Shown here: piece by piece, positions 10,502 to 59,842 of the stretch
Position numbering within the stretch: the stretch's first letter is position 1
How the letters are laid out: each line of letters opens with the position of its first letter
Origin: Neisseria dumasiana
GTDB taxonomy: Bacteria > Pseudomonadota > Gammaproteobacteria > Burkholderiales > Neisseriaceae
Reading direction: 5' to 3'
Assembly: GCF_022870885.1 (NCBI RefSeq)
Contig: NZ_CP091509.1
Coordinates: 1,922,001 to 1,986,000, forward strand
DNA: 64,000 nucleotides
The notes under the pieces: generated by a model
What the model saw: only the letters and a program-made list of their open reading frames with translations
The model's database searches: none
Told to the model about the DNA's origin: nothing
Made by a program: the position numbers and the translations under genes

Positions 10502-12040
10502 TTATTTCTTTTCTTTCGGCATTTGTGATACCAAAGACAAGTTCACATCCAAGCCCTCAATTTGGAAGTGCGGGCGGGCATACAAGCGCACTTTGAAGAA
10601 GCCCGGATTATCTTCGATATCTTCAACAATCACTTTGGCCTCTCTCAAGGGATGGGTAGCTTGCAATTCATCGCTCGGATCGGTCATTTCCGTTACCAAA
10701 CCGCTAATCCAAGTGTTCAACTCCAATTCGAGCATGCGGCGGTCTTTAGTAGTGCCGATGTTTTCACGTTGAATCAGCTTCAGGTAGTGAGCCAAACGCG
10801 ACAATAAGAATACATACGGCAAGCGTGAGTTGATGCGGCTGTTGGCCGTTGCCTCTTTGGTTTCAAACAAAGCCGGTTTTTGTGCCGAGTTAGCAGAGAA
10901 GAAGCAGGCGTAATCACGGTTTTTATAGAACGAGAGTGGCACGAAGCCCAAGTTGGCAAACTCAAATTCACGCGTTTCGGGAATCAATACCTCAGTAGGA
11001 ATTTTCACCTGATTGCCTGTGCCCAAGTCGTACATGTGAATCGGCAAATCCTCAATCAAACCGCCTGCCTGCGGACCGCGAATCTGTACACACCAGCCGT
11101 TGTTAATAAAGCTGCGAACCATATTGGCAGCAAAGGCGAAAGAAGCATTCGCCCACAGATAACGCTCGTGATCATTGCCTTTAACCTGCTCTTCATAATT
11201 AAAGCTGCGCACCGGCACTGTGTCGCTGCCATAAGGCAAACGGGCGAGGAAGCGCGGCAAAGTCAAACCGATGTAGCGCGAATCTTCACTTTCACGGAAG
11301 CTCTTCCATTTAATGTATTCGGCACGGTCAACATAGCTGGCAATATCCTGAATCGCAGCCACTTCTTCCATATGTTCTTTACCGAAAAACTCCGCGCCAA
11401 CCGAACCGATAAACGGCATGTGCGCCGAAGCTGAAACACGGGAAATATTGCGGAGCAACGCGATATCCTGCGGATTTCTGCCGAATTCGTAATTGGAAAT
11501 AATGGCACCGATCGGTTCTCCGCCCGGCGTGTCGTATTCCATCGTATAAGTATGGCGGTAAAGGCCGCTTTGTGAAATTTCTGGCGTATCTTCAAAGTCT
11601 TGCACCAAATCTTCTTTAGAAATATCCAGAATTTCGATTTTTACGTTGCGACGGAAATCGGTGCGGTCAACCAAAAATTTCAAACCGCGCCAACCCGATT
11701 CCACTTTCTGAAATTCTTCGTTATGCAGAATTTCATCTAATTGCCGGCTGATTTTTTCATCTATTCTAGCGATATGATAATCCAATAAACTACGGTCAAG
11801 ACGTTCCACTTTTTGGGAAGAATCCTGCACCATTTTCAAAAATACGTTAACCGCCGCCGCAATCCTTTCATCGGCAGAAGATTCCGACATTTTCTCATTG
11901 CTTTGGAACTTCTCGATATCGATAACAGAATCAACGGTATTTAAATTGATTTTTTGGCAAAGTGTTTCGTAAATATTACCGCTTTGAATATTTTCAGTTT
12001 TTTCAACAACCGTTGTTTTAGCCTGCTGGACTTTTTGCAT
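10502..12040 (-). CDS. tssC: Type VI secretion sheath large subunit TssC (VipB)
   Basis: 512 residues from the ATG at 12040 (MQKVQQAK); the longer frame to 12139 would overlap tssB. TssC and TssB polymerise into the contractile sheath around the Hcp tube in the cytoplasm. Family signatures: DEILHNEEFQKVESGWRGLKFLV, EFGRNPQDIALLRNISRVSASAHMPFIGS, and the C-terminal region FFKVRLYARPHFQIEGLDVNLSLVSQMP. Transcribed after tssB with a 37-base gap, divergent from the tssK operon. Confidence 0.96.
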   Translation of the reverse strand: MQKVQQAKTTVVEKTENIQSGNIYETLCQKINLNTVDSVIDIEKFQSNEKMSESSADERIAAAVNVFLKMVQDSSQKVERLDRSLLDYHIARIDEKISRQLDEILHNEEFQKVESGWRGLKFLVDRTDFRRNVKIEILDISKEDLVQDFEDTPEISQSGLYRHTYTMEYDTPGGEPIGAIISNYEFGRNPQDIALLRNISRVSASAHMPFIGSVGAEFFGKEHMEEVAAIQDIASYVDRAEYIKWKSFRESEDSRYIGLTLPRFLARLPYGSDTVPVRSFNYEEQVKGNDHERYLWANASFAFAANMVRSFINNGWCVQIRGPQAGGLIEDLPIHMYDLGTGNQVKIPTEVLIPETREFEFANLGFVPLSFYKNRDYACFFSANSAQKPALFETKEATANSRINSRLPYVFLLSRLAHYLKLIQRENIGTTKDRRMLELELNTWISGLVTEMTDPSDELQATHPLREAKVIVEDIEDNPGFFKVRLYARPHFQIEGLDVNLSLVSQMPKEKK

Positions 12041-12077
12041 TTTATTTTCCTTGTTCAATATTCTCACGTTGCTGAAA

Positions 12078-12578
12078 TTACTTATCAACCGGCGCGATTT
12101 TTTCCAACTCGTTACGCAGTTCTTTAGATAGCGATTCATCTTTCAAAATCGTTTCCAGCTCACGGCGGAAACCGGCGTCATCAAGCAAATTGGATTTCAA
12201 ATCACGCAACAGGTTACGCATTGCCAGCAAAGCACGCAGTTCGGGAACGCTTCTGGCAATCTGTTCGGGATGGAAATCGTCCATCGAAGTGAAGTTCAGA
12301 TCCACGTTCAAATCGCTGCCGTCGCCGGCCAAAGTGTTTTTAACGGCGATATTCACTTTCGGGTTGTAATCGGCAAGAACCGAATCAAAGTTGTTTTTGT
12401 TTACGTTAACTTTTTCACGCTCTGCAAGCGGGCGGTGATCCTGTCCGTTACTGTAATCGCCCGCTACCAATAATTTAAGAGGCAGTTCCACCTTCTTCTG
12501 CGCTCCGCCCGTATGCAAATCCAATTTGATATTAATCCGCGCAGGCGGTACTTCGTTTTGAAAACTCTTGCTACTCAT
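12078..12578 (-). CDS. tssB: Type VI secretion sheath small subunit TssB (VipA)
   Basis: 166 residues. The N-terminal segment NEVPPARINIKLDLHTGG and the following LPLKLLVAGDYS are the family hallmarks, and MDDFHPEQIARSVPELRALLAMRNLLRDLK is the helical C-terminal part that packs against TssC. Stop codon and tssC start are close, consistent with a two-gene operon, and AGGATAACG lies upstream of the ATG. Confidence 0.96.
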   Translation of the reverse strand: MSSKSFQNEVPPARINIKLDLHTGGAQKKVELPLKLLVAGDYSNGQDHRPLAEREKVNVNKNNFDSVLADYNPKVNIAVKNTLAGDGSDLNVDLNFTSMDDFHPEQIARSVPELRALLAMRNLLRDLKSNLLDDAGFRRELETILKDESLSKELRNELEKIAPVDK

Positions 12579-17189: not shown

Positions 17190-19964
17190 ATGTCTGCTCA
17201 GAATCAAGCCATGCTTCTCCGACGTTTGAACCATTACTGCCAACAGGCTATGGAAGCGGCGGCCAGTTTATGTCAAACCCGCGGTCATGCCGAAATTACC
17301 GTCGACCACCTATTTATCAAACTGTTGGAGCTGGATGAAGGCGATATTGTATCGATTCTCCGCCGCTATGAAATCAATTCAGACGGCATCTGGAATCCCC
17401 TTCTGGCAACCATGGACAAACTGCCCCGAAATGTGCGCGGCAACCCCAGCCTGTCCAAATCATTGGTTGCACTATTGTCTGATGCCTGGCTGCAGGCTTC
17501 TGATGACGGCAGCACAGAAATCCGTTCCTCACACCTTTACATTGCCTTATTAAAATCACCCTACCGCTTAATGAGCCAAGATGCCTGGCCGCTTTTCAGC
17601 ATCACCGAAACACAGATAGGCCGTCTGAAAAACTGGCTGGACGAAGTTTCTACCGAAGGCATCCAACACACAAGCGATGCGGCGGAAAATGCCTCATCTG
17701 CATCAGCAGGCAATACCGAATCAGCCGCTTTTTCCGTTGCCCAAAACCACCAAAACGAAGCCTTGGCCAAATTTACCGTTAACCTTACCGAAAAAGCACA
17801 AAAAGGCGAGATAGACCCTATTTTCGGAAGAGAAACCGAAATCCGCCAGATGATCGACATTCTGCTGCGCCGCCGTAAAAACAATCCCATTTTGGTCGGC
17901 GAACCCGGTGTCGGCAAAACTGCATTGGTAGAAGGCTTGGCATTGAAAATTGCAGCCGACGAAGTGCCTGCCATTTTGAAAGACACTCAATTACTGGTAT
18001 TGGATTTAGGCTTGCTGCAAGCCGGTGCCGGCGTGAAAGGCGAATTCGAACAACGCTTGAGAAACGTAATCGAAGCCGTTCAAAACGCTGAAAAATCAAC
18101 ATTGCTGTTTATTGACGAAGCACACACTTTAATTGGTGCGGGCAACAGCGCCGGCGGCGCCGACGCCGCCAACTTGCTCAAACCCGCATTGGCCAGAGGC
18201 GAATTGCGCACCATTGCCGCAACCACTTGGAGCGAATACAAACAGTATTTTGAAAAAGACGCCGCCCTAGAGCGCCGTTTCCAAATGGTTAAAGTGGACG
18301 AACCCGATGATGAATCGGCCTTTACCATGCTGCGCGGCTTGAAACAGCGCTATGCCGCATACCATAACGTACATATTCAAGATTCCGCCATCGTGGCAGC
18401 CGTTCAACTTTCCCGCAAATACATTACCGGCCGCCAACTGCCCGACAAAGCAGTTGATTTGTTGGATACGGCTTCTGCCCGTGTCCGCATGAGTTTGGAC
18501 ACCGTACCGCATCAGTTCAGCCTGATGGATGCCCAAGCCGCATCTTTGCAACGTGAAATTGAAGCGTTGAAAACCGATGATTTATTAAGCCAAGCAACCG
18601 AATCAGAGCAAGAAAAAATGGCTTTGGCCCAGCAAGAACTCGACGAACTGAATGCCAAAAAAGCAGCATTAACTGCACGTTATGAAGCAGAAAAACAGCT
18701 GGCCGATAAAGTGCAGGAATTAATCGCAAAAATCAAACACCCCGACACCGATGAATCCGCTCGCATTCACGCGAAAGACGAATTGCACGCAGCCCAAGCC
18801 GAATTGGAAAAAATGGCTTCAGACGGCCAAAGTTTAATATTTACCAGCGTTGACGAAAGCGTGATCGCCAACATCATCGCCGACTGGACCGGTGTGCCGA
18901 CAGGCAGCATTCTCAAAGACGAACTGGCCAACCTGCTGCAATTGGAAAGCATCATGTCTAAGCGCGTGGTAGGCCAAGACGAAGCCGTCCACGCCATTGC
19001 GCAAAGCCTGCGCGCCGTTAAAGCCGGTTTGAAAACCAATGAATCCCCGTTGGGCGTATTCCTGCTTTCCGGCCCATCCGGTGTCGGCAAAACCGAAACC
19101 GCATTGGCATTGGCCGATGCTTTATTCGGCGGCGAAAAATCTCTCATCACCATCAACATGTCTGAATATCGGGAAGCTCATACCGTATCGCAACTGAAAG
19201 GCTCTCCTCCCGGATATGTCGGTTACGGGCAAGGCGGCATCTTAACCGAAGCCGTACGCCAAAAGCCTTACAGCGTGGTTTTATTGGACGAAATTGAAAA
19301 AGCCCATAAAGATATTCTCAACCTTTTCTATCAGGTGTTCGACAAAGGCATCATGCGGGACGGAGAAGGCAGGGAAATCGACTTCAAAAACACCGTTATT
19401 TTGATGACTTCAAACCTGGGTGCCGACGAACTGCTCCAGCTGCTCCAACCTGTTGAAGACGCTCCGGCAGAACAGCCCGAAACAGAAGGTTCATCCACTC
19501 CGGAATCTACCGAATCCGAACAAAAACAGCCCGAAATGCCGGAAGAAGACAGCAGCACCGAAACACCGGAATACACACAGGCAGAACTCCAAGAAGCTAT
19601 CCGCCCTATTTTGGTAGATCATTTCCAAGCCGCATTGCTGGCGCGGATGCAGGTTATACTGTACAGACCGTTGCAAACAGAAGCCTTGGCTGAAATCGTA
19701 CGCCTCAAGCTCAATAAAGTAGCGGCACATCTGCATGAACAACATCAAACCAAACTGGTGTACAGCGATGAATTTGTTCATCTGATTGCATCTTCCTGCA
19801 CAATCAACGACAGCGGCGCCCGCAATATCGACCACCTGCTCAACCAGCAAGTGCTGCCGGTTATTGCACAAAGCTTCCTGCAATGGCAGCAAACCGTCGG
19901 CCACCCGCCCAAACAGGCAACATTGGCGGTAGCCAACGGCGAGATTGATGTATTGTTTGAATAA
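17190..19964 (+). CDS. clpV: Type VI secretion AAA+ ATPase ClpV (TssH)
   Basis: 924 residues. ClpV recycles contracted TssBC sheaths using ATP. Seen in order: Clp N-terminal repeats (1-145), first AAA module with GEPGVGKTA and FIDEAHTLIGAG, a middle coiled coil (about 430-540), second AAA module with GPSGVGKTET and VVLLDEIEKAH, and the C-terminal small domain. Odd point: about 40 acidic, Pro/Ser/Thr-rich residues (about 757-797) sit between TSNLGADELLQLL and LQEAIRPILVDHFQAALLARM, where relatives have a short loop. The start is preceded by TAGAGAA. Confidence 0.95.
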   Translation: MSAQNQAMLLRRLNHYCQQAMEAAASLCQTRGHAEITVDHLFIKLLELDEGDIVSILRRYEINSDGIWNPLLATMDKLPRNVRGNPSLSKSLVALLSDAWLQASDDGSTEIRSSHLYIALLKSPYRLMSQDAWPLFSITETQIGRLKNWLDEVSTEGIQHTSDAAENASSASAGNTESAAFSVAQNHQNEALAKFTVNLTEKAQKGEIDPIFGRETEIRQMIDILLRRRKNNPILVGEPGVGKTALVEGLALKIAADEVPAILKDTQLLVLDLGLLQAGAGVKGEFEQRLRNVIEAVQNAEKSTLLFIDEAHTLIGAGNSAGGADAANLLKPALARGELRTIAATTWSEYKQYFEKDAALERRFQMVKVDEPDDESAFTMLRGLKQRYAAYHNVHIQDSAIVAAVQLSRKYITGRQLPDKAVDLLDTASARVRMSLDTVPHQFSLMDAQAASLQREIEALKTDDLLSQATESEQEKMALAQQELDELNAKKAALTARYEAEKQLADKVQELIAKIKHPDTDESARIHAKDELHAAQAELEKMASDGQSLIFTSVDESVIANIIADWTGVPTGSILKDELANLLQLESIMSKRVVGQDEAVHAIAQSLRAVKAGLKTNESPLGVFLLSGPSGVGKTETALALADALFGGEKSLITINMSEYREAHTVSQLKGSPPGYVGYGQGGILTEAVRQKPYSVVLLDEIEKAHKDILNLFYQVFDKGIMRDGEGREIDFKNTVILMTSNLGADELLQLLQPVEDAPAEQPETEGSSTPESTESEQKQPEMPEEDSSTETPEYTQAELQEAIRPILVDHFQAALLARMQVILYRPLQTEALAEIVRLKLNKVAAHLHEQHQTKLVYSDEFVHLIASSCTINDSGARNIDHLLNQQVLPVIAQSFLQWQQTVGHPPKQATLAVANGEIDVLFE

Positions 19965-53432: not shown

Positions 53433-53453
53433 ATGGATATTAAAAGGACGAAA

Positions 53454-54185
53454 ATGAAGCATCACAACCAATCCATTCTTCATATTGGCGACTGCCGCCT
53501 TGTACTCCCCCGGTTGGCCCGGCAAGGCGTGAAAGTTCAAACCTGCATTACCTCACCGCCGTATTACGGTTTGCGCGATTACGGCTGTAACGGACAAATC
53601 GGCTTGGAGCCGACCGTGAATGAGTATGTCGGCAATTTGGTAGAAGTGTTCCGTATGGTGCGTGATGTATTGGCCGATGACGGAACCTTATGGCTCAACC
53701 TCGGCGACAGTTATGCAGGCAGCGGCAAAGGCCGCAATGCCGACGGCAGCCCGTTTAGCGGATATCAAGATTCATTTCAGACGAGAACCCAACTGACAGG
53801 CCGTCTGAAAAGCACACCGCTATCAGACGGTCTCAAAGCCAAAGACCTGATCGGCATTCCGTGGCGCGTCGCCCTGGCTTTGCAGGCAGACGGCTGGTAT
53901 TTGCGCCAAGATATTATTTGGCACAAAACCAACCCGATGCCCGAATCCGTCACCGACCGCTGCGTCCGCTCACACGAATATCTCTTCTTGTTATCCAAAA
54001 ACAATCGTTACTACTTCGATCATGAAGCCATCCGGGAGCCTTCGGACAGTTACGAACGCCCCGGCGCAAACCGACAAAATGATTTCTGCCGGACGAAAGG
54101 CAAATACACGGCAATGCCGAATCCCGGCCAGCGTGCAACCCAACACCGCAGTAACCGCGAGCACACACCTGTACGAAGACCTTGA
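53454..54185 (+). pseudogene. DNA methyltransferase (N4/N6 type), C-terminus lost
   Basis: 243 codons from the ATG with AAGGA before it. Motif IV-like TSPPYYGLRDY near residue 33 and DGTLWLNLGDSYAG, then DLIGIPWRVALALQADGWYLRQDIIWHKTNPMPESV fit the beta-class order. The region that should follow with the SAM-binding DPFxGSGT is missing: the frame degenerates after NPGQRATQHRSN and stops at 54183. Probably inactive. Confidence 0.8.
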
Positions 54186-54477
54186 TTCCGCTTTACGGGA
54201 TTTTTGTGCCTATGAGCATTTGGGCGCACGTCTCTATTTAATCAATGATGCGGGCGAAAAGGAATATTGGTTTTGGGATTTTTGGCATCGGTACGGCTGT
54301 TTTCAGACGGCCTGTTTTGATGCCGACGGCCTTTTCCCGTCCGATTATCAGAAAGTGAATTGCGAGAGGGTTTTGCAAAGGTCTCGGCCTGTTTGGGTAG
54401 ATAACATCCGACGGCAATGCGAGGCTGCCGGAACCGCGTTTTTCTTCAAACAATGGGGCGGGGAGCAGACGGCATAA
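54158..54477 (+). pseudogene. C-terminal remnant resembling phage Gp37/Gp68 (DUF5131)
   Basis: Open in the next frame after the broken methyltransferase. The end, RPVWVDNIRRQCEAAGTAFFFKQWGG, is the recognisable C-terminus of DUF5131 proteins; the part before (HLYEDLDSALRDFCAYEHLGARLYL) has no clear match. No start codon of its own with ribosome site. It suggests a deletion that joined parts of two genes. Confidence 0.5.
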
Positions 54478-54586
54478 AGCGCAGTAAGCGTGCCAATGGA
54501 TGTTTGCTCAATGGGGAACTTCAACAGGGGTTTCCTAAATTATTATTCAGCAATTAAGTAAACTAGAAATCAAAAAGGAATCTGAT

Positions 54587-55006
54587 ATGAAAAACAAATT
54601 ACATCAATACCCCACAAATTATATTTTTGATTCAACACTGGGGCGAGATGAAATAACCCCACAGTGGGTAGCCAAACTTAATCAATTGACTACATATCTT
54701 GATAAATATCTGAACGGGATTGATAAAATCCATTGGGACTTTTACCGTTATAAAGATGGTTGTTTTTCTGCGGTGGACATGCACGGATTAAACGGAGAAA
54801 CCTTTTCTCTGACGCTGACGGTAGGAAGAGAGAATGTTTGGCCCTCTAAGCTTTTTGAGGGATTAAAAAAAGCAGAGGATGCAGATATTCAAATGCTGGA
54901 TACAGTCGATATTCATAAGTTGGTCACTTTCATCCTTCATCAGTACGAGCTGGATACTTGTATATCTGAAAACAATCAATTATGTTTTTTTAGGCGTACC
55001 AATTAA
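54587..55006 (+). CDS. Hypothetical protein
   Basis: 139 residues, ATG preceded by AAAAAGGAATCTGAT. Soluble, acidic, with a middle segment KIHWDFYRYKDGCFSAVDMHGLNGETFSLTLTVGRENVW. AT-rich. Its last 27 bases overlap the end of the convergent gene. Looks like small immunity-type proteins in size, but no evidence for that. Confidence 0.6.
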   Translation: MKNKLHQYPTNYIFDSTLGRDEITPQWVAKLNQLTTYLDKYLNGIDKIHWDFYRYKDGCFSAVDMHGLNGETFSLTLTVGRENVWPSKLFEGLKKAEDADIQMLDTVDIHKLVTFILHQYELDTCISENNQLCFFRRTN

Positions 55007-55975
55007 TCTAAAAAAATTCAAATCAGAGATAGTTATTTGTATTTCCTTCCAACCGGAATCAAATTTATACTCAGTAACGATGTTAGGCTTTGGTATAAAA
55101 TACGCTGTCAAACTTTCAAATTTCTCATAATTGTTCAATATATCAAGCAGAGCATTACGATGGCGGTATTCGCGTATTTGCTCTGGCGATATATAAATAG
55201 TGACTGCTAGCTCATTTATTTTCGCCCAGAACTTAACTCTAAAACCTGTTCCATATTTTTTTATTCCATTATTGTTGGAAAGCTGGCCAAATAATATGCA
55301 GTCATACTCATGTTCTTCATTGTCCAGTATTAATGCATATTTGATTAACCGAAAATACTTATAGAAATTGGTATCTCCTAAGCCTGTTACGTGCAATGGG
55401 ATTTCTTTTAAGTCATTTAAATTTGGCAGTACTTTTGCAAGTTCATAGTGATATTGGCAAATTTTTTGAAAGGAATGAGTTGTTCTTCCATGGCTGCCCG
55501 TATGTATTTTGTCTTGGGACTGGGAGGAGGGATTGACTGTATTTGAACCTAAAACAGTTACTGGACTGCTTTCTGTACGAACCCCGGTATCAGGTTCATA
55601 AGGTGTGTATGTTGTAATCCAGTCAGAAACTGTATTGTAAGTTTGTTGCCGGATTACAGCTAAACGTTCTGTTTCACCCGGGTGTGGAGATGGGTGGCTC
55701 AGGTAATTATGCATGATTACCCATTCACAATCGGGATGATGTTTATATTCGTGATTTTCTCGGAAATGCATTGCATTTTGCTGTTGAGAGATAGGTTTAT
55801 CGTAGTTTACCCCTATTATTTTCACACCCTTTTCCCTGCATCTAGGGTCAGAGCAAAGAAACTCAAATCTTTTATAAGGTGCTCCTCCTCTCATAGATTC
55901 TTCATGAGCACGGTCAATGTCTACTACATCTCCCAATTCAACGCAGTATGCTTCTGTAATTTTAACTTTCCTCAT
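54980..55975 (-). CDS. Hypothetical protein with zinc-binding-like N-terminus
   Basis: 331 residues. Residues about 38-85 hold FLCSDPRCREKGVKI...MHFRENHEYKHHPDCEW: C-x4-C, then an HF...H...HH..C set resembling the zinc site at the start of CoiA-like proteins. The remainder is alpha/beta without a recognised catalytic motif. AT-rich; transcribed with the ThrH-like operon upstream (79-base gap). Function unknown; a nucleic-acid role is possible. Confidence 0.6.
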   Translation of the reverse strand: MRKVKITEAYCVELGDVVDIDRAHEESMRGGAPYKRFEFLCSDPRCREKGVKIIGVNYDKPISQQQNAMHFRENHEYKHHPDCEWVIMHNYLSHPSPHPGETERLAVIRQQTYNTVSDWITTYTPYEPDTGVRTESSPVTVLGSNTVNPSSQSQDKIHTGSHGRTTHSFQKICQYHYELAKVLPNLNDLKEIPLHVTGLGDTNFYKYFRLIKYALILDNEEHEYDCILFGQLSNNNGIKKYGTGFRVKFWAKINELAVTIYISPEQIREYRHRNALLDILNNYEKFESLTAYFIPKPNIVTEYKFDSGWKEIQITISDLNFFRLIGTPKKT

Positions 55976-56054
55976 GCGTCAACCTCATTATTGTTTCTAA
56001 AGGATAATTGATAAATAACTTTTAAATACTCAATAAAGAAATACTTCATATACC

Positions 56055-56672
56055 CTATTCTAATTTTCCTTTTAAATATTCTGTTATCTGATCATAGTTT
56101 CGTACTACTCTAAAATTTGGGGAAGCCATCAACAAAGCCTGTTGAGAAGGATTAAACAAAAAGCCATCATCTGCGTAGTCAAGCATAGTGAAATCATTAA
56201 AAGTATCGCCTATCGCAATAGAATAAGCATTCCGCTTCTCTTTTAATATTTGTTCCAAGACTTCATATTTCCCTTTCTCTCGCATATAAATCGCGTCAGT
56301 AATATATCCTGATTCATCACATGTGAAATGGTTAGGATAAATATTACATACTTCCAAATTTTTAACACTATCCCCAATAATTTCCAAAAAGGCGTCAGTA
56401 ACAATATAAATGTCAAAATGCATTTTTTGTAAGGATTTTACAAAGTCCAAGGCACCATCTAGTAGCTTAATTTGTTTGGATAACGTGGATAGATGTTGCA
56501 ATTGAACATTGTTTTTTTTCAGTATTTTGATTCTTTCACTAACCAATTTTTTAAAATCAGGTTCTTCTCTAGTAGTTTTGCCCAACTCCGGCAATCCAAG
56601 CTTGTGTGCATAAATTTCCCAAATTTCGGGATACAGTACCCCTTCCAAGTCTAAAAAAGCAAAACGTTCCAT
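56055..56672 (-). CDS. thrH: ThrH-like HAD phosphatase/phosphotransferase
   Basis: 205 residues from the ATG with AAGGAGA upstream. HAD motif I is FLDLEGVLYPE (Asp8, with Glu in the third position, characteristic of ThrH rather than DxD), motif III includes the Lys in REKGKYEVL, and motif IV is IAIGDTFNDFTML. EIWEIYAHKLGLPELGKTTREEPDFKKLVSERIKIL closely follows ThrH of pseudomonads, which acts as phosphoserine phosphatase and phosphoserine:homoserine phosphotransferase. Last of three operon genes with an exporter and a dioxygenase. Confidence 0.85.
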   Translation of the reverse strand: MERFAFLDLEGVLYPEIWEIYAHKLGLPELGKTTREEPDFKKLVSERIKILKKNNVQLQHLSTLSKQIKLLDGALDFVKSLQKMHFDIYIVTDAFLEIIGDSVKNLEVCNIYPNHFTCDESGYITDAIYMREKGKYEVLEQILKEKRNAYSIAIGDTFNDFTMLDYADDGFLFNPSQQALLMASPNFRVVRNYDQITEYLKGKLE

Positions 56673-56698
56673 AATATTTTCTCCTTGTTTAATTTCGC

Positions 56699-57316
56699 TC
56701 AAAACGGAATTGATGAAAATATCAGCATTCCACCCAGCAAAATTAAAATTGCTCCGATAAAACGGTTAACATATTTCTGTTTTTGCAATAATCTATTTCT
56801 AATTAATGGGCTGGATAACACCTCCGCTACAAATACAAACCAAATTAGATGTGCAATAGACATAAATGCCCCATACCCTAATTGGATGTAAATAGAAGTG
56901 GTTGGTTTTACTATTTGAGTAAATGTACTCAATACAAATAGAGTTGTTTTGGGATTTAAAGCATTTGTTACAAAACCATTTTTAAATGCTTCAATATCAC
57001 TAAGTGTCTTTGATGAGGCATTTAAATCCACGGTTACGTTGTGATGATTAAATGTTTTAAATCCGATATAAACTAAATAAGTTGCGCCCAATATCTTTAT
57101 AAAATGAAACAATGTAGGAAATTTGAGCAACAATATGCTGACACCTAGCAGTGTGTAACCTATATGGATCCAAACGGCAGAAGCTATACCTAAAGATGTC
57201 AATACTCCTGCTCTCCTGCCATGCAGATAACTGTTTCTAGTGACCATGGCGAAGTCCCCACCGGGACTGATAACCGCAAGTATGGTAATTAAGGCTACGG
57301 CTATGAGTTCTTGCAT
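56699..57316 (-). CDS. LysE/RhtB-family amino acid exporter
   Basis: 205 residues, six membrane helices. The family signature ISPGGDFAMVTRNSYLHGRRAGVLTSLGIASAVWIH is at the N-terminus, followed by LGATYLVYIGFKTF and FKNGFVTNALNPKTTLFVLSTF. RhtB-type proteins export homoserine, threonine, leucine and relatives. The start lies three bases after the dioxygenase stop, so they are translated together. Confidence 0.93.
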   Translation of the reverse strand: MQELIAVALITILAVISPGGDFAMVTRNSYLHGRRAGVLTSLGIASAVWIHIGYTLLGVSILLLKFPTLFHFIKILGATYLVYIGFKTFNHHNVTVDLNASSKTLSDIEAFKNGFVTNALNPKTTLFVLSTFTQIVKPTTSIYIQLGYGAFMSIAHLIWFVFVAEVLSSPLIRNRLLQKQKYVNRFIGAILILLGGMLIFSSIPF

Positions 57317-57319
57317 GAC

Positions 57320-58078
57320 TTAATCCGTTTCTTTAAAGGTGATAACTAATATATCTCGATATGCTTCGCCTTCAATTGCTGAATGTTTGTAAACAGGAGA
57401 TACACTGTGGAATACTTTTGTATCATCTACAATAGCGATATCCAAAGTATCCATTAAGGTAAATTGTGCTAATGGTTGTTTATCTAAATCGTAAATTGTC
57501 GTTTCTTCACCTTGAACGTTATTTCTTTTAACCATAGCCATTAAAACGTATGCAACGCCATCACGATGGATACCTTCGGGCGTGGGTAATCCGATAACAC
57601 CTTCTTTAGCTTTTATACGGAACTGATGAACCTCAATAAAATAGTTTGTAGGTTTAAGCCCTGAAAATAGTAGGTAGGCAAATTTCATCAATCCCTCAAA
57701 CACCTCATTTTTTAACACTTGTTCAGGGATTTCTTTAAAGTATCTAGCTACACCTCCATTTAGCTCATTGTAATATTTTGTTTGGAAATGTGGCTGGTAC
57801 GGTAATAGGCACACCGAATTGTCGGATACCGACGAAGCGAAAACCGCATGTGTTCTTTCACGATATTTACCTCCATCAGCCATGAAAGTGTCTTCTTCTA
57901 AATTGAACCAAGTGTTGATAAATTCATTTATTGATTCTTTAGAAGGATAATGCAGTAGAATCTCTCCGATAATCTGTCTTGCTTGTTCTGAAGGAATGTG
58001 TGAGAAATAGTTACTTTTAACTTGCTCTTTGATAGTTTCAATAGATGAAGAGTTCGATTTAATATTTTGATATATCAT
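57320..58078 (-). CDS. 2-oxoglutarate/Fe(II) dioxygenase (amino-acid-hydroxylase type)
   Basis: 252 residues from the ATG with GAGGAA upstream. It fits the 2OG-Fe dioxygenase family that includes the Bacillus isoleucine hydroxylase: FNLEEDTFMADGGKYRERTHAVF, EVHQFRIKA, the iron ligands His-x-Asp in GIHRDGVAYVLMAM, distal His in DTKVFHSVSPV, and Arg in YRDILVITF for the co-substrate. It may hydroxylate a free aliphatic amino acid; substrate unproven. Lead gene of an operon with exporter and ThrH-like enzyme. Confidence 0.82.
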   Translation of the reverse strand: MIYQNIKSNSSSIETIKEQVKSNYFSHIPSEQARQIIGEILLHYPSKESINEFINTWFNLEEDTFMADGGKYRERTHAVFASSVSDNSVCLLPYQPHFQTKYYNELNGGVARYFKEIPEQVLKNEVFEGLMKFAYLLFSGLKPTNYFIEVHQFRIKAKEGVIGLPTPEGIHRDGVAYVLMAMVKRNNVQGEETTIYDLDKQPLAQFTLMDTLDIAIVDDTKVFHSVSPVYKHSAIEGEAYRDILVITFKETD

Positions 58079-58182
58079 AATAATTCCTCGCTTTGAAATT
58101 GTATGAGCCATTATGTGCGAAGAATTTTGCGCCAAAATTTAAACTAAAAAAATCGAATTATTATCTTTTCATGTGTGAGATT

Positions 58183-59040
58183 ATGGAAAATATTAGACGA
58201 TTACCACTTAATGCACTTAAGTTTTTTTATTTCGTTGGAAAATATGGAAGTCTAGTTGCCGCTTCGCAGCAACTTCATGTAACACATGGTGCAGTAAGCA
58301 AGCAATTGAAGCTTCTAGAAGAGCACCTGAATGAAACATTATTTATTAAGCAAGGCCGCAATCTCCGACTTTCTTCTGCAGGATTAATATTGTATGAATC
58401 CTGCCAGTACATTTTTTCAGAACTCCAAAGCACATTAACTAAATTAGATCATGGTAAAGATAAAGATTTGGTGGTTTCGTGCGAACCTACTTTGGCGATG
58501 AGATGGTTAATTCCTAGAATTACTCGCTTCCCAAAGGATTTCGGCTTTAATGTGGTAATTTTAGCTGCTGGAGGGAACGTAGATTTTCATCATCAAAAGA
58601 TTGATGTAGCTATACGGCGAAATGACTTTTCATGGCCCAAAACAATTTATTCTGAATTGTTGTGTAATGAAAGAATGGGGCCGGTACATATCCCTTCACT
58701 TTCTACGGATGCAAAAAAGTTGCATACATACACACGCCCTCATGCATGGAAAGATTGGGAGAAATGTCATAGAAATAAATTTTCATGTAAAGAAAATATG
58801 TTTTTTGAACACTTTTATCTATCCATTCAAGCTGCAATCGCAGGACTGGGGATCGCTATGGCTTCTGAGCTGATGGTTGAAGACGAAATAAAGCAAGGGA
58901 TATTAATCGCACCTTATGATTTCAGGGAGGATGGATCTAGATATTATTTGCTATCAGAGATAGCTTTTGAAACTGATTATCGCAGAATTAAATTTTTATC
59001 TTGGTTGCGAGAACAAATGAATGATTTTATTGGGGAGTAG
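58183..59040 (+). CDS. LysR-family regulator (GcvA-like)
   Basis: 285 residues from the ATG at 58183; ATG at 58171 would add four residues. Winged-helix start RRLPLNALKFFYFVGKYGSLVAASQQLHVTHGAVSKQLKLLEEHL, then a periplasmic-binding-like effector domain (about 90-285). It is divergent from the dioxygenase operon across about 105 AT-rich bases and most probably controls it in response to an amino acid or its derivative. Confidence 0.9.
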   Translation: MENIRRLPLNALKFFYFVGKYGSLVAASQQLHVTHGAVSKQLKLLEEHLNETLFIKQGRNLRLSSAGLILYESCQYIFSELQSTLTKLDHGKDKDLVVSCEPTLAMRWLIPRITRFPKDFGFNVVILAAGGNVDFHHQKIDVAIRRNDFSWPKTIYSELLCNERMGPVHIPSLSTDAKKLHTYTRPHAWKDWEKCHRNKFSCKENMFFEHFYLSIQAAIAGLGIAMASELMVEDEIKQGILIAPYDFREDGSRYYLLSEIAFETDYRRIKFLSWLREQMNDFIGE

Positions 59041-59262
59041 CATACATTAATCATAAATAAGAAAAAAATGATGATAATTCCCGCAGGAGGGGGCAAGTCG
59101 GGCTTGGGCTTGCCGGTTGCGTAGGTTGCCGCAGGTGCCGGAGCGGTCGGCATGGTCAAGTCCGGCTTGGGGGCGTGGGGACGTTTCGGGCGGAGGTACG
59201 GAGCCGGGAACGGGGCTGCTGCGGGCTGGATTTTGACAAACGGGCTTCCCACCTGCCATATT
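59041..59262 (-). pseudogene. Proline-rich coding remnant
   Basis: Read on the minus strand, 59252 to about 59080 gives a 55-residue Pro/Ala/Lys-rich stretch (GSPFVKIQPAAAPFPAPYL... KPKPDLPPPAG) in GC-rich DNA which changes abruptly into AT-rich frame filler. It looks like a piece of a proline-rich linker protein cut by the arrival of the AT-rich island. Too short for naming. Confidence 0.35.
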
Positions 59263-59298
59263 CAGGCCGTCTGAATCCGTCTCTTTCAGACGGCCTGC
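59263..59298. terminator. Paired uptake-sequence hairpin
   Basis: CAGGCCGTCTGAA and TTCAGACGGCCTG over nine bases, just after the end of the minus-strand gene at 59303. Confidence 0.8.
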
Positions 59299-59302
59299 TA
59301 TA

Positions 59303-59842
59303 TCAAAAATTAAAGATTACTTGCTCGATTGTCCACCAAGTTTTAGGGTATGCTTCCCTAAATTCGTCAATTTCCCATAGATTTTCTTCATCATCAATTC
59401 CTGTATCATAGATAAATTTTCCGTCTGAACCTATAAAATGTGTTGCTCTTATACAACCATTTCTTATACTGGCCTCCACATTGGCGACATTTTCCAGCAT
59501 CAGCAGATTAGTTAAGGCTACTGTGTCTAGCCTTGTATTAGGTGGAATATCTCCTTTCAGGCAGTCTGAAAACAACTTGTCATACGTTGTGCGGGGTAAC
59601 AATGCAAACGTGTCCGTCATAGTTCCGACACCGAAATCCTCACATGTTTGAGCCAGTAAGTCGTAAGTAAAATCGGAACTGCCTTTTAAGGCCGAAGCAA
59701 AAATTTCTATACAATCGTCCGCGGTCAAACCATCATTCAAGCCGTCCATATCACGCCACATCGTCATAAATACTTCCCGCATCTGCTTCGGGTGAAGTTC
59801 TGATATTTGAGTGAGAATGTGGTCAACATTGTTTACTTGCAT
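59303..59842 (-). CDS. Hypothetical protein
   Basis: 179 residues, acidic, soluble, mostly helical. FMTMWRDMDGLNDGLTADDCIEIFASALKGSSDF and TFALLPRTTYDKLFSDCLKGDIPPNTRLDT are its clearest stretches; not recognised. Stop-start overlap of 10 bases with the next gene upstream, so the two are an operon. Confidence 0.6.
   Translation of the reverse strand: MQVNNVDHILTQISELHPKQMREVFMTMWRDMDGLNDGLTADDCIEIFASALKGSSDFTYDLLAQTCEDFGVGTMTDTFALLPRTTYDKLFSDCLKGDIPPNTRLDTVALTNLLMLENVANVEASIRNGCIRATHFIGSDGKFIYDTGIDDEENLWEIDEFREAYPKTWWTIEQVIFNF

What the first reader, a model, noticed from the sequence alone, without database searches (positions are those of the whole stretch)
54980..59040. Dioxygenase, amino-acid exporter and ThrH-like enzyme in one regulated operon on a conjugative element
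A 2OG/Fe(II) dioxygenase of the amino-acid hydroxylase type is translated together with an RhtB/LysE exporter (three-base gap) and a ThrH-like phosphatase/homoserine phosphotransferase, with a divergent LysR regulator. Together these suggest that the cell modifies and exports an amino acid, perhaps a hydroxylated or homoserine-related compound, as a signal, an antimetabolite or a detoxified product. The island is clearly more AT-rich than its surroundings and may also include the zinc-site protein at 54980. I know of no described Neisseria system of this make-up.
Basis: partly seen in the sequence, partly recalled or inferred. Interest (0 to 1): 0.78.

Follow-up and report, generated by a model that had tools for sequence, protein, structure and literature searches.

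The report
Mobile amino-acid hydroxylation and export cassette
A small block of genes, carried on a transferable piece of Neisseria DNA and also found in distantly related bacteria, appears to add a hydroxyl group to a free amino acid, probably threonine, and pump the product out of the cell, perhaps to poison competitors.

Summary
An AT-rich block (35% GC) holds a PF10014 2OG/Fe(II) dioxygenase, an RhtB/LysE exporter 3 nt downstream, a ThrH-like HAD enzyme and a divergent LysR gene, in a window with type IV secretion and relaxase genes. The linkage is not chance: 14 of 80 fetched dioxygenase loci carry all four genes in the same layout (Acinetobacter, Agrobacterium vitis, Polaromonas, Rugamonas and others), and N. 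animalis has an intact set. The cassette ThrH proteins form a lineage apart from 30 ordinary ones (100/100 support), with the catalytic residues kept. LysR–dioxygenase gaps share a bipartite sequence in 12 of 20 (shuffles average 0.02; pattern chosen after viewing). Best reading: a horizontally moving, regulated make-and-export cassette for a hydroxylated amino acid. Threonine to 4-hydroxythreonine (4HT), a known antimetabolite, is the leading guess: one of two PF10014 enzymes reported active on threonine comes from A. vitis, where 3 of 3 genomes searched have one PF10014 gene, inside this cassette. The ThrH-like enzyme would then act on phosphorylated 4HT. Substrate, product and role are inferred. 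It is a new variant of known hydroxylase-plus-exporter operons (IDO, Hil). The zinc-site gene travels with it only in Neisseria.

The parts
57320..58078 (-). PF10014 (BsmA/DUF2257) 2OG/Fe(II) dioxygenase, 252 aa; presumed iron ligands H171, D173, H224; R241
   Evidence: Pfam 1.5e-60; H171, D173, H224, R241 invariant in 20 aligned sequences; AlphaFold mean pLDDT 85.9; PDB fold matches 3pl0, HrmJ, 8w8h, 6lnh IDO, TqaL, BelL
56699..57316 (-). RhtB/LysE-family exporter, 205 aa, 3 nt after the dioxygenase stop
   Evidence: PF01810 6.3e-31; NCBIfam TIGR00949 1.5e-40, below curated cut-off
56055..56672 (-). ThrH-like HAD phosphatase/phosphotransferase, 205 aa; D8, E10, R47, T92, K135, G155-D156, N159-D160
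   Evidence: NCBIfam PRK13582 above cut-off; 1rku E 1.5e-25; own lineage, 100/100
58183..59040 (+). divergent LysR-family regulator (GcvA/DsdC-like), 285 aa; alternative in-frame ATG at 58171
   Evidence: PF00126 and PF03466; NCBIfam GcvA 186 bits, below cut-off 288
58149..58180 (-). candidate operator: TCTCAC (58175-58180) and TCGATTTT (58149-58156), bipartite pattern shared by 12 of 20 cassettes
   Evidence: TCAC-N15-21-TCGNTTT in 12 of 20 intergenic regions; mean 0.02, maximum 1, in 300 rounds of shuffles (pattern chosen after seeing the sequences)
58123..58139 (.). 17-bp inverted repeat containing T-N11-A (the LysR-box form, recalled)
   Evidence: found in window, L001 and L002; not reported in the other 16 regions scanned
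54980..55975 (-). zinc-site protein of unknown function; travels with the cassette in three Neisseria only
   Evidence: 13 database hits; conserved Cys/His; model pLDDT 80.7 with no PDB match at E <= 0.001
54537..59445 (.). block shared with N. dentiae at 95.3% identity in unrelated flanks: the mobile unit in Neisseria
   Evidence: flanks in N. dentiae are tRNA-synthetase genes, transposase genes and a zeta-toxin-type gene

Best explanation
It is a horizontally moving, LysR-controlled cassette that makes and exports a hydroxylated amino acid. The dioxygenase hydroxylates a free L-amino acid, most likely at C4, and RhtB exports the product (together about 0.7). The leading specific version (about 0.4) is L-threonine to 4-hydroxythreonine (4HT). 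4HT is a toxic threonine analogue that homoserine kinase turns into 4-phosphohydroxythreonine (4HTP). The ThrH-like enzyme would remove, or move, that phosphate, so that the producer is protected while RhtB sends 4HT out as an antimetabolite. Shown here: gene content, layout, conservation as a unit, intact catalytic residues, a dedicated ThrH lineage, a shared candidate operator, and occurrence of the block in unrelated flanks. Inferred: the substrate, the product, the ThrH reaction, LysR control and the purpose.
For: Same four-gene layout in 14 of 80 loci, in N. animalis and in 3 of 149 Acinetobacter genomes, one of them already among the 14. RhtB adjoins in 24 of 80. In the dioxygenase tree the 39-row clade that holds the M. 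flagellatus enzyme has RhtB beside 0 of 39. PMC8948231 (passages): MFL of M. flagellatus is inactive on threonine; AVI of A. vitis and BPE of B. petrii are the only two known with threonine activity. Three of 3 A. vitis genomes searched have one PF10014 gene, inside this cassette. Operon ThrH: 15 rows split from 30 ordinary ones at 100/100, catalytic residues kept. 4HT is toxic and ThrB makes 4HTP from it (PMC7954711 passages). P. aeruginosa ThrH is a phosphoserine phosphatase and phosphoserine:homoserine phosphotransferase (PMC1079889 passages). Pairwise distances of all six gene pairs correlate across 14 cassettes (r 0.61-0.89).
Against: No activity is shown. AVI was also usable as a C4 hydroxylase on leucine, and IlvA turnover is reported as about 16,000-fold above that of AVI or BPE, so threonine may not be the natural substrate. 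That AVI is the cassette enzyme is probable, not verified: another A. vitis strain has a different PF10014 gene on a plasmid. The window enzyme is 45% identical to the A. vitis one and 41% to MFL, too close to call by identity. Ten RhtB-linked loci lack a detected ThrH. The ThrH-like gene is out of frame in L001 and L002, and the dioxygenase too in L002, so the function is dispensable there. In 11 pruned cassettes the dioxygenase and RhtB distances do not correlate clearly (r 0.36, 121 of 2000 permutations as high). Two of four substrate-contact residues of IDO are not kept. Residue 180 (Met in all 25 RhtB-linked rows) is also Met in 6 rows without RhtB, so it marks descent, not linkage.
Confidence: 0.5

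Rival explanations
1. The substrate is a branched-chain or sulfur amino acid (leucine, isoleucine, norvaline, methionine). The product, such as 4-hydroxyleucine, is exported by RhtB; the ThrH-like enzyme has a side role in serine/threonine metabolism.
For: IDO acts on five aliphatic amino acids (PMC13336071 passages). AVI also served as a C4 hydroxylase in a leucine-based route, with lower yield than MFL. The RhtB protein also matches the leucine exporter LeuE model (65 bits, below cut-off 165).
Against: A dedicated ThrH lineage is hard to explain for branched-chain substrates. The clade with MFL has no RhtB or ThrH beside it (0 of 39).
Confidence: 0.25
2. A natural 4HT-dependent vitamin B6 route: the dioxygenase makes 4HT and the ThrH-like enzyme phosphorylates it from phosphoserine to 4HTP, the PdxA substrate. 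RhtB vents excess.
For: [quoted passage not shown] ThrH transfers phosphate from phosphoserine to homoserine.
Against: An exporter is not expected in a cofactor route. The cassette is sparse and mobile (3 of 83 Neisseriaceae genomes with a close relative). PMC9997740 (passage) states that such routes are yet to be found as the primary route in natural settings. Whether these hosts lack PdxB was not tested.
Confidence: 0.1
3. Different chemistry: ring closure (cyclopropane or aziridine) on an amino acid, giving an exported antimetabolite.
For: The fold matches include HrmJ, BelL and TqaL. Their ring-forming reactions are recalled, not from a call.
Against: The best fold match is the BsmA homologue 3pl0 and IDO matches with TM (target) 0.79-0.84; HrmJ ranks above IDO by E-value, so fold alone does not exclude this.
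Confidence: 0.07
4. Detoxification: LysR senses a foreign amino-acid analogue, which the enzymes modify and export.
For: A linked LysR and an exporter suit an inducible defence; sparse, mobile distribution.
Against: The IDO and Hil dioxygenases make hydroxy amino acids that their authors link to exported bioactive compounds (PMC3684760).
Confidence: 0.08

Closest known systems
IDO operon of Bacillus thuringiensis (PF10014 dioxygenase, AMKP reductase, RhtA exporter)
   Same: PF10014 free-amino-acid hydroxylase in one operon with an amino-acid exporter; the end product is proposed as an exported conditional antibiotic (PMC3684760)
   Different: No reductase here; the exporter is RhtB/LysE, not RhtA; a ThrH-like HAD enzyme and a divergent LysR are added
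Hil operons of Pantoea, Pseudomonas, Rahnella, Xenorhabdus
   Same: LysR regulator, PF10014 dioxygenase, exporter in some
   Different: No HilA (PF13640), HilP or HilC here; HilB model matched at only 32 bits against a cut-off of 350
AVI of Agrobacterium vitis (threonine-active PF10014 hydroxylase)
   Same: Very probably the enzyme of the A. vitis copy of this cassette
   Different: The A. vitis cassette enzyme is 45% identical to the window enzyme over 206 residues; its identity with the assayed protein was not verified
ThrH of Pseudomonas aeruginosa (1rku)
   Same: Sequence match E 1.5e-25; catalytic motif residues as in ordinary ThrH
   Different: Separate lineage; the Ser after GD (30 of 30 ordinary rows) is Ala 12, Thr 2 or Gly 1, and the Pro at 176 (30 of 30) is Ser (15 of 15)
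DUF2257-DUF1537 route to 4HTP
   Same: Would share the threonine to 4HT step (PMC7954711)
   Different: ThrH-like HAD enzyme in place of the DUF1537 kinase; exporter present

Membership tests
PF10014 free-amino-acid C4 hydroxylases | HxD...H iron triad and distal arginine | tested here: met
   H171, D173, H224, R241 invariant in 20 aligned sequences; they align with IDO H159, D161, H212, R227 (mapping is mine)
PF10014 free-amino-acid C4 hydroxylases | IDO substrate contacts Y143, S153, P155 | tested here: inconclusive
   P155 is kept as P167; Y143 and S153 correspond to I155 and P165 (mapping is mine)
PF10014 free-amino-acid C4 hydroxylases | fold like IDO | tested here: met
   model matches 6lnh, TM (target) 0.79-0.84
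PF10014 free-amino-acid C4 hydroxylases | hydroxylates a free amino acid | not testable with these tools
   needs an enzyme assay
Hil operon | core HilR, HilP, HilA, HilB, HilC | tested here: not met
   of these, only a LysR and a PF10014 gene are in the cassette
IDO operon | dioxygenase, reductase, RhtA exporter | tested here: not met
   no reductase among the five genes; the exporter is PF01810
ThrH | HAD catalytic residues DxE, S/T, K, GDxxND | tested here: met
   D8, E10, K135, G155, D156, N159, D160 in 15 of 15 operon rows; position 92 is S 12, T 3
ThrH | groups with ordinary ThrH | tested here: not met
   opposite side of a 100/100 branch from 30 ordinary rows; passes PRK13582 but not TIGR02137
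RhtB/LysE exporters | PF01810 above gathering score | tested here: met
   107.8 bits against 25.6
RhtB/LysE exporters | exports threonine or homoserine | not testable with these tools
   TIGR00949 best but below cut-off

The most novel reading that the evidence does not exclude
A dedicated natural 4-hydroxythreonine system: a mobile, LysR-switched cassette that makes the antimetabolite 4HT from threonine, protects its host with a specialised ThrH-type phosphatase acting on 4HTP, and exports 4HT through RhtB against competitors. In this Neisseria window it lies on the same stretch as type VI and type IV secretion genes, and its ThrH-like gene may be switched on and off at a homopolymer tract.
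Probability: 0.27. Interest if true: 0.75.

Novelty: new variant of a known kind. Interest (0 to 1): 0.52.

Why it matters
Why bacteria hydroxylate free amino acids with PF10014 enzymes is unsettled: the 2013 Hil paper offers hypotheses only (PMC3684760). A conserved cassette that joins such an enzyme to an exporter and to a dedicated phosphate-handling enzyme makes the question testable with LC-MS and a growth-inhibition experiment. If the product is 4HT, this would be a natural 4HT-producing gene set, whereas a review states that 4HT-dependent B6 routes are yet to be found as the primary route in nature (PMC9997740 passage). It would also mean that genes annotated as ThrH in such loci do something other than serine or threonine synthesis.

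Tried and rejected
Chance linkage: rejected. 37 of 37 other genomes with an ordinary ThrH in a class sample of 369, and 29 of 29 examined in an order sample of 399, had no dioxygenase or RhtB match nearby; flanks were at most about 1.5 kb for most, one extra partial match (G452) and 17 of 47 matching genomes of the order sample were not looked at.

The zinc-site protein as a core part: rejected outside Neisseria. Its model gave only weak OB-fold-like matches (best E 2.3e-3), so nothing is claimed. A defence role: no PADLOC match for P0001, P0002, P0003 or P0005 (P0004 was not put in).

Close plasmid relatives: none for the block. The A. vitis plasmid PF10014 gene is a different arrangement.

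Substrate by sequence identity: window to A. vitis 45%, window to MFL 41%, A. vitis to MFL 46%; this does not decide.

It is Met in 25 of 25 linked rows and Val in 39 of 39 and 10 of 10 rows of two unlinked clades, but of the ten rows left out of that count six without RhtB also have Met (four Chromobacterium, L052, L066), two have Val, and two with Met have no known context (L011, P0009).

The 17-bp palindrome as the general LysR site: rejected; reported in the three near-identical Neisseria regions only. Sigma-70-type promoter matches were no more than in shuffles (12 against a mean of 17.7).

Eight further Acinetobacter genomes with weaker dioxygenase-type matches (nine loci) have no RhtB, ThrH or LysR match in their short loci.

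Bordetella petrii BPE context and the Smirnov 2012 and Thiaville 2016 papers could not be examined; Smirnov 2012 may already describe some contexts.

Ten neighbour proteins from seven loci without RhtB showed no common partner.
Full report
What is there. On the minus strand, in transcription order: a PF10014 dioxygenase (57320-58078), an RhtB/LysE exporter (56699-57316; 3 nt gap), a ThrH-like HAD enzyme (56055-56672; 26 nt gap with an AAGGAG sequence) and a zinc-site protein (54980-55975). The LysR gene (58183-59040) is divergent. Family assignments are strong for the dioxygenase, exporter and LysR. They are mixed for ThrH, which passes one curated cut-off and fails another. The nearest solved structure by sequence of the ThrH-like protein is 1rku, E 1.5e-25 (recalled as P. 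aeruginosa ThrH).

A foreign block in a mobile island. The block is 35.4% GC against 47.2% and 44.3% on its two sides and 46.6% for the window; it is the most AT-rich stretch of its length in the window, scanned in steps of 250. It holds none of the 57 copies of the uptake word, which occur about once per kb elsewhere in the window. The window carries genes that I name VirB4, VirB11-like and VirD4 from their Pfam types, a relaxase and a primase at 31-52.6 kb, and type VI secretion genes (VipB; a ClpV-like AAA+ protein) at 10.5-20 kb. In Neisseria sp. MVDL19-042950 the block sits in a related element; the parts of the conjugation region that align are 72-93% identical. In N. dentiae 54537-59445 is shared (95.3%); its flanks there are tRNA-synthetase and transposase genes on one side and a zeta-toxin-type and an IS1595-type transposase gene on the other. 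So the block moves independently of the element. Of 83 Neisseriaceae genomes, three have a close dioxygenase (G001, G002, G012) and two a distant one. G012, taken as N. animalis from its contig length, has an intact LysR-dioxygenase-RhtB-ThrH set without the zinc-site gene.

The linkage is conserved. In these 80, 14 have LysR, dioxygenase, RhtB and ThrH-like in this layout, 4 have LysR, dioxygenase and RhtB, 6 (all Streptomyces) have dioxygenase and RhtB, and 56 have none of the partners in this layout; in 4 of the 56 the contig ends within 700 nt. The 14 are from Neisseria (two), Acinetobacter, Sphaerotilus, an Enterobacteriaceae strain, a Burkholderiales MAG, Polaromonas, Rugamonas, Pseudosulfitobacter, Agrobacterium vitis (three strains), Amantichitinum and Hydromonas. 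Beyond the four genes the sizes and strands of the neighbours differ. In Acinetobacter, 3 of 149 genomes have the full set, one of them the strain just named. In a tree of 84 dioxygenases a 39-row clade with the M. flagellatus enzyme has no RhtB neighbour, and all 25 RhtB-linked rows lie outside it.

The ThrH-like gene is a real part. Fifteen cassette ThrH proteins and 30 ordinary ones fall on opposite sides of a 100/100 branch; the catalytic positions are shared and a few other positions differ. The ordinary ones were the best-scoring matches in a sample of 369 genomes, which favours canonical proteins; seven lower-scoring ones fetched afterwards also scored higher against the ordinary set than against the cassette set and had no dioxygenase nearby. 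Acinetobacter Ver3 has both kinds (349.6 and 185.7 bits). Pairwise distances of the four proteins correlate over 14 cassettes (r 0.61-0.89; none of 2000 permutations as high for any pair). After pruning near relatives to 11 this holds for every pair but dioxygenase-RhtB (r 0.36, 121 of 2000).

A shared candidate operator. In 12 of 20 intergenic regions TCAC and TCGNTTT lie 15-21 nt apart; shuffles average 0.02. The pattern was chosen after looking at the sequences. Three Neisseria and three A. vitis rows are near copies, so about eight lineages carry it. The eight regions without it include two full cassettes of gammaproteobacteria (L003, L019), L025, L054 and the four LysR-dioxygenase-RhtB loci. 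In several loci TCAC lies at or near the LysR start, so that half may partly reflect coding.

What it probably makes. The dioxygenase has the iron triad and distal arginine of the family and its model matches IDO and other PF10014 structures. PF10014 enzymes hydroxylate free leucine, isoleucine and threonine (PMC3684760: part 1 of 5 of the full text and passages). PMC8948231 (passages) states that MFL is inactive on threonine and that AVI from A. vitis and BPE from B. petrii are the only two known with threonine activity. Three of three A. vitis genomes searched have a single PF10014 gene, and it is the cassette gene. A fourth strain carries another on a plasmid beside a DMT transporter and an argininosuccinate-synthase-related gene, so that AVI equals the cassette enzyme is probable, not proven. 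4HT is described as toxic and is converted by the homoserine kinase ThrB to 4HTP, the PdxA substrate (PMC7954711, passages). ThrH is a phosphoserine phosphatase that can pass phosphate to homoserine (PMC1079889, passages). These facts make threonine to 4HT, with ThrH acting on 4HTP and RhtB exporting 4HT, the most economical model. It is inference. The low threonine turnover of AVI, its use on leucine, and ten RhtB-linked loci without a detected ThrH count against it. A residue that at first seemed to track RhtB linkage (position 180) does not on a full count.

Relation to known systems. It works like the IDO and Hil operons, which couple a PF10014 hydroxylase with export, but lacks their defining reductase, HilA, HilP and HilC genes, so it is not a member of either. 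Ten literature searches listed no paper whose title or abstract opening described a PF10014-RhtB-ThrH set. The library holds open-access papers only, and Smirnov 2012 and Thiaville 2016 were not read.

Verdict.

Noticed in passing
56055-56672; L001:7407-8020; L002:7409-8022: The ThrH-like gene is in frame in the window but out of frame in Neisseria sp. MVDL19-042950 and N. dentiae, where a homopolymer tract differs in length. Another full-length database copy exists (P0139). Possible phase variation, or decay.
   Followed up: partly
L002:6001-6755: The N. dentiae dioxygenase gene is also broken by a frame change.
   Followed up: partly
10502-12139 and 17190-19964: Type VI secretion genes (VipB sheath, ClpV-like AAA+ protein) lie in the same window as the type IV conjugation genes.
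   Followed up: no
54312-59265: Stretch of about 5 kb free of DNA uptake words, bounded on the right by an inverted pair at 59266-59294.
   Followed up: partly
L088:2710-5606 (A. vitis plasmid pRvVAR0630b): Another PF10014 gene directly after a DMT transporter and an argininosuccinate-synthase-related gene: a different transporter-linked arrangement.
   Followed up: no
57320-58078, residue 180: Met or Val just after the HRDG iron motif splits the dioxygenase tree by clade; it does not strictly follow RhtB linkage.
   Followed up: yes
L023:5941-7576: The Chromobacterium sphagni dioxygenase gene is followed by a family-3 solute-binding-protein gene (PF00497), the family of HilP (HilP family from PMC3684760).
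   Followed up: no
53433-54477: DNA methyltransferase gene that looks truncated, followed by an overlapping ORF in another frame.
   Followed up: no
54980-55975: Small protein family (13 database hits) with a conserved Cys/His cluster, some named 'ATPase' in Pseudomonas; model with pLDDT 80.7 but no clear PDB match.
   Followed up: partly
L009:3566-6744; L005:3503-6759: Gammaproteobacterial dioxygenase genes behind a class-III aminotransferase gene and an NMT1-like binding-protein gene (L009 typed; L005 by similar layout only).
   Followed up: no
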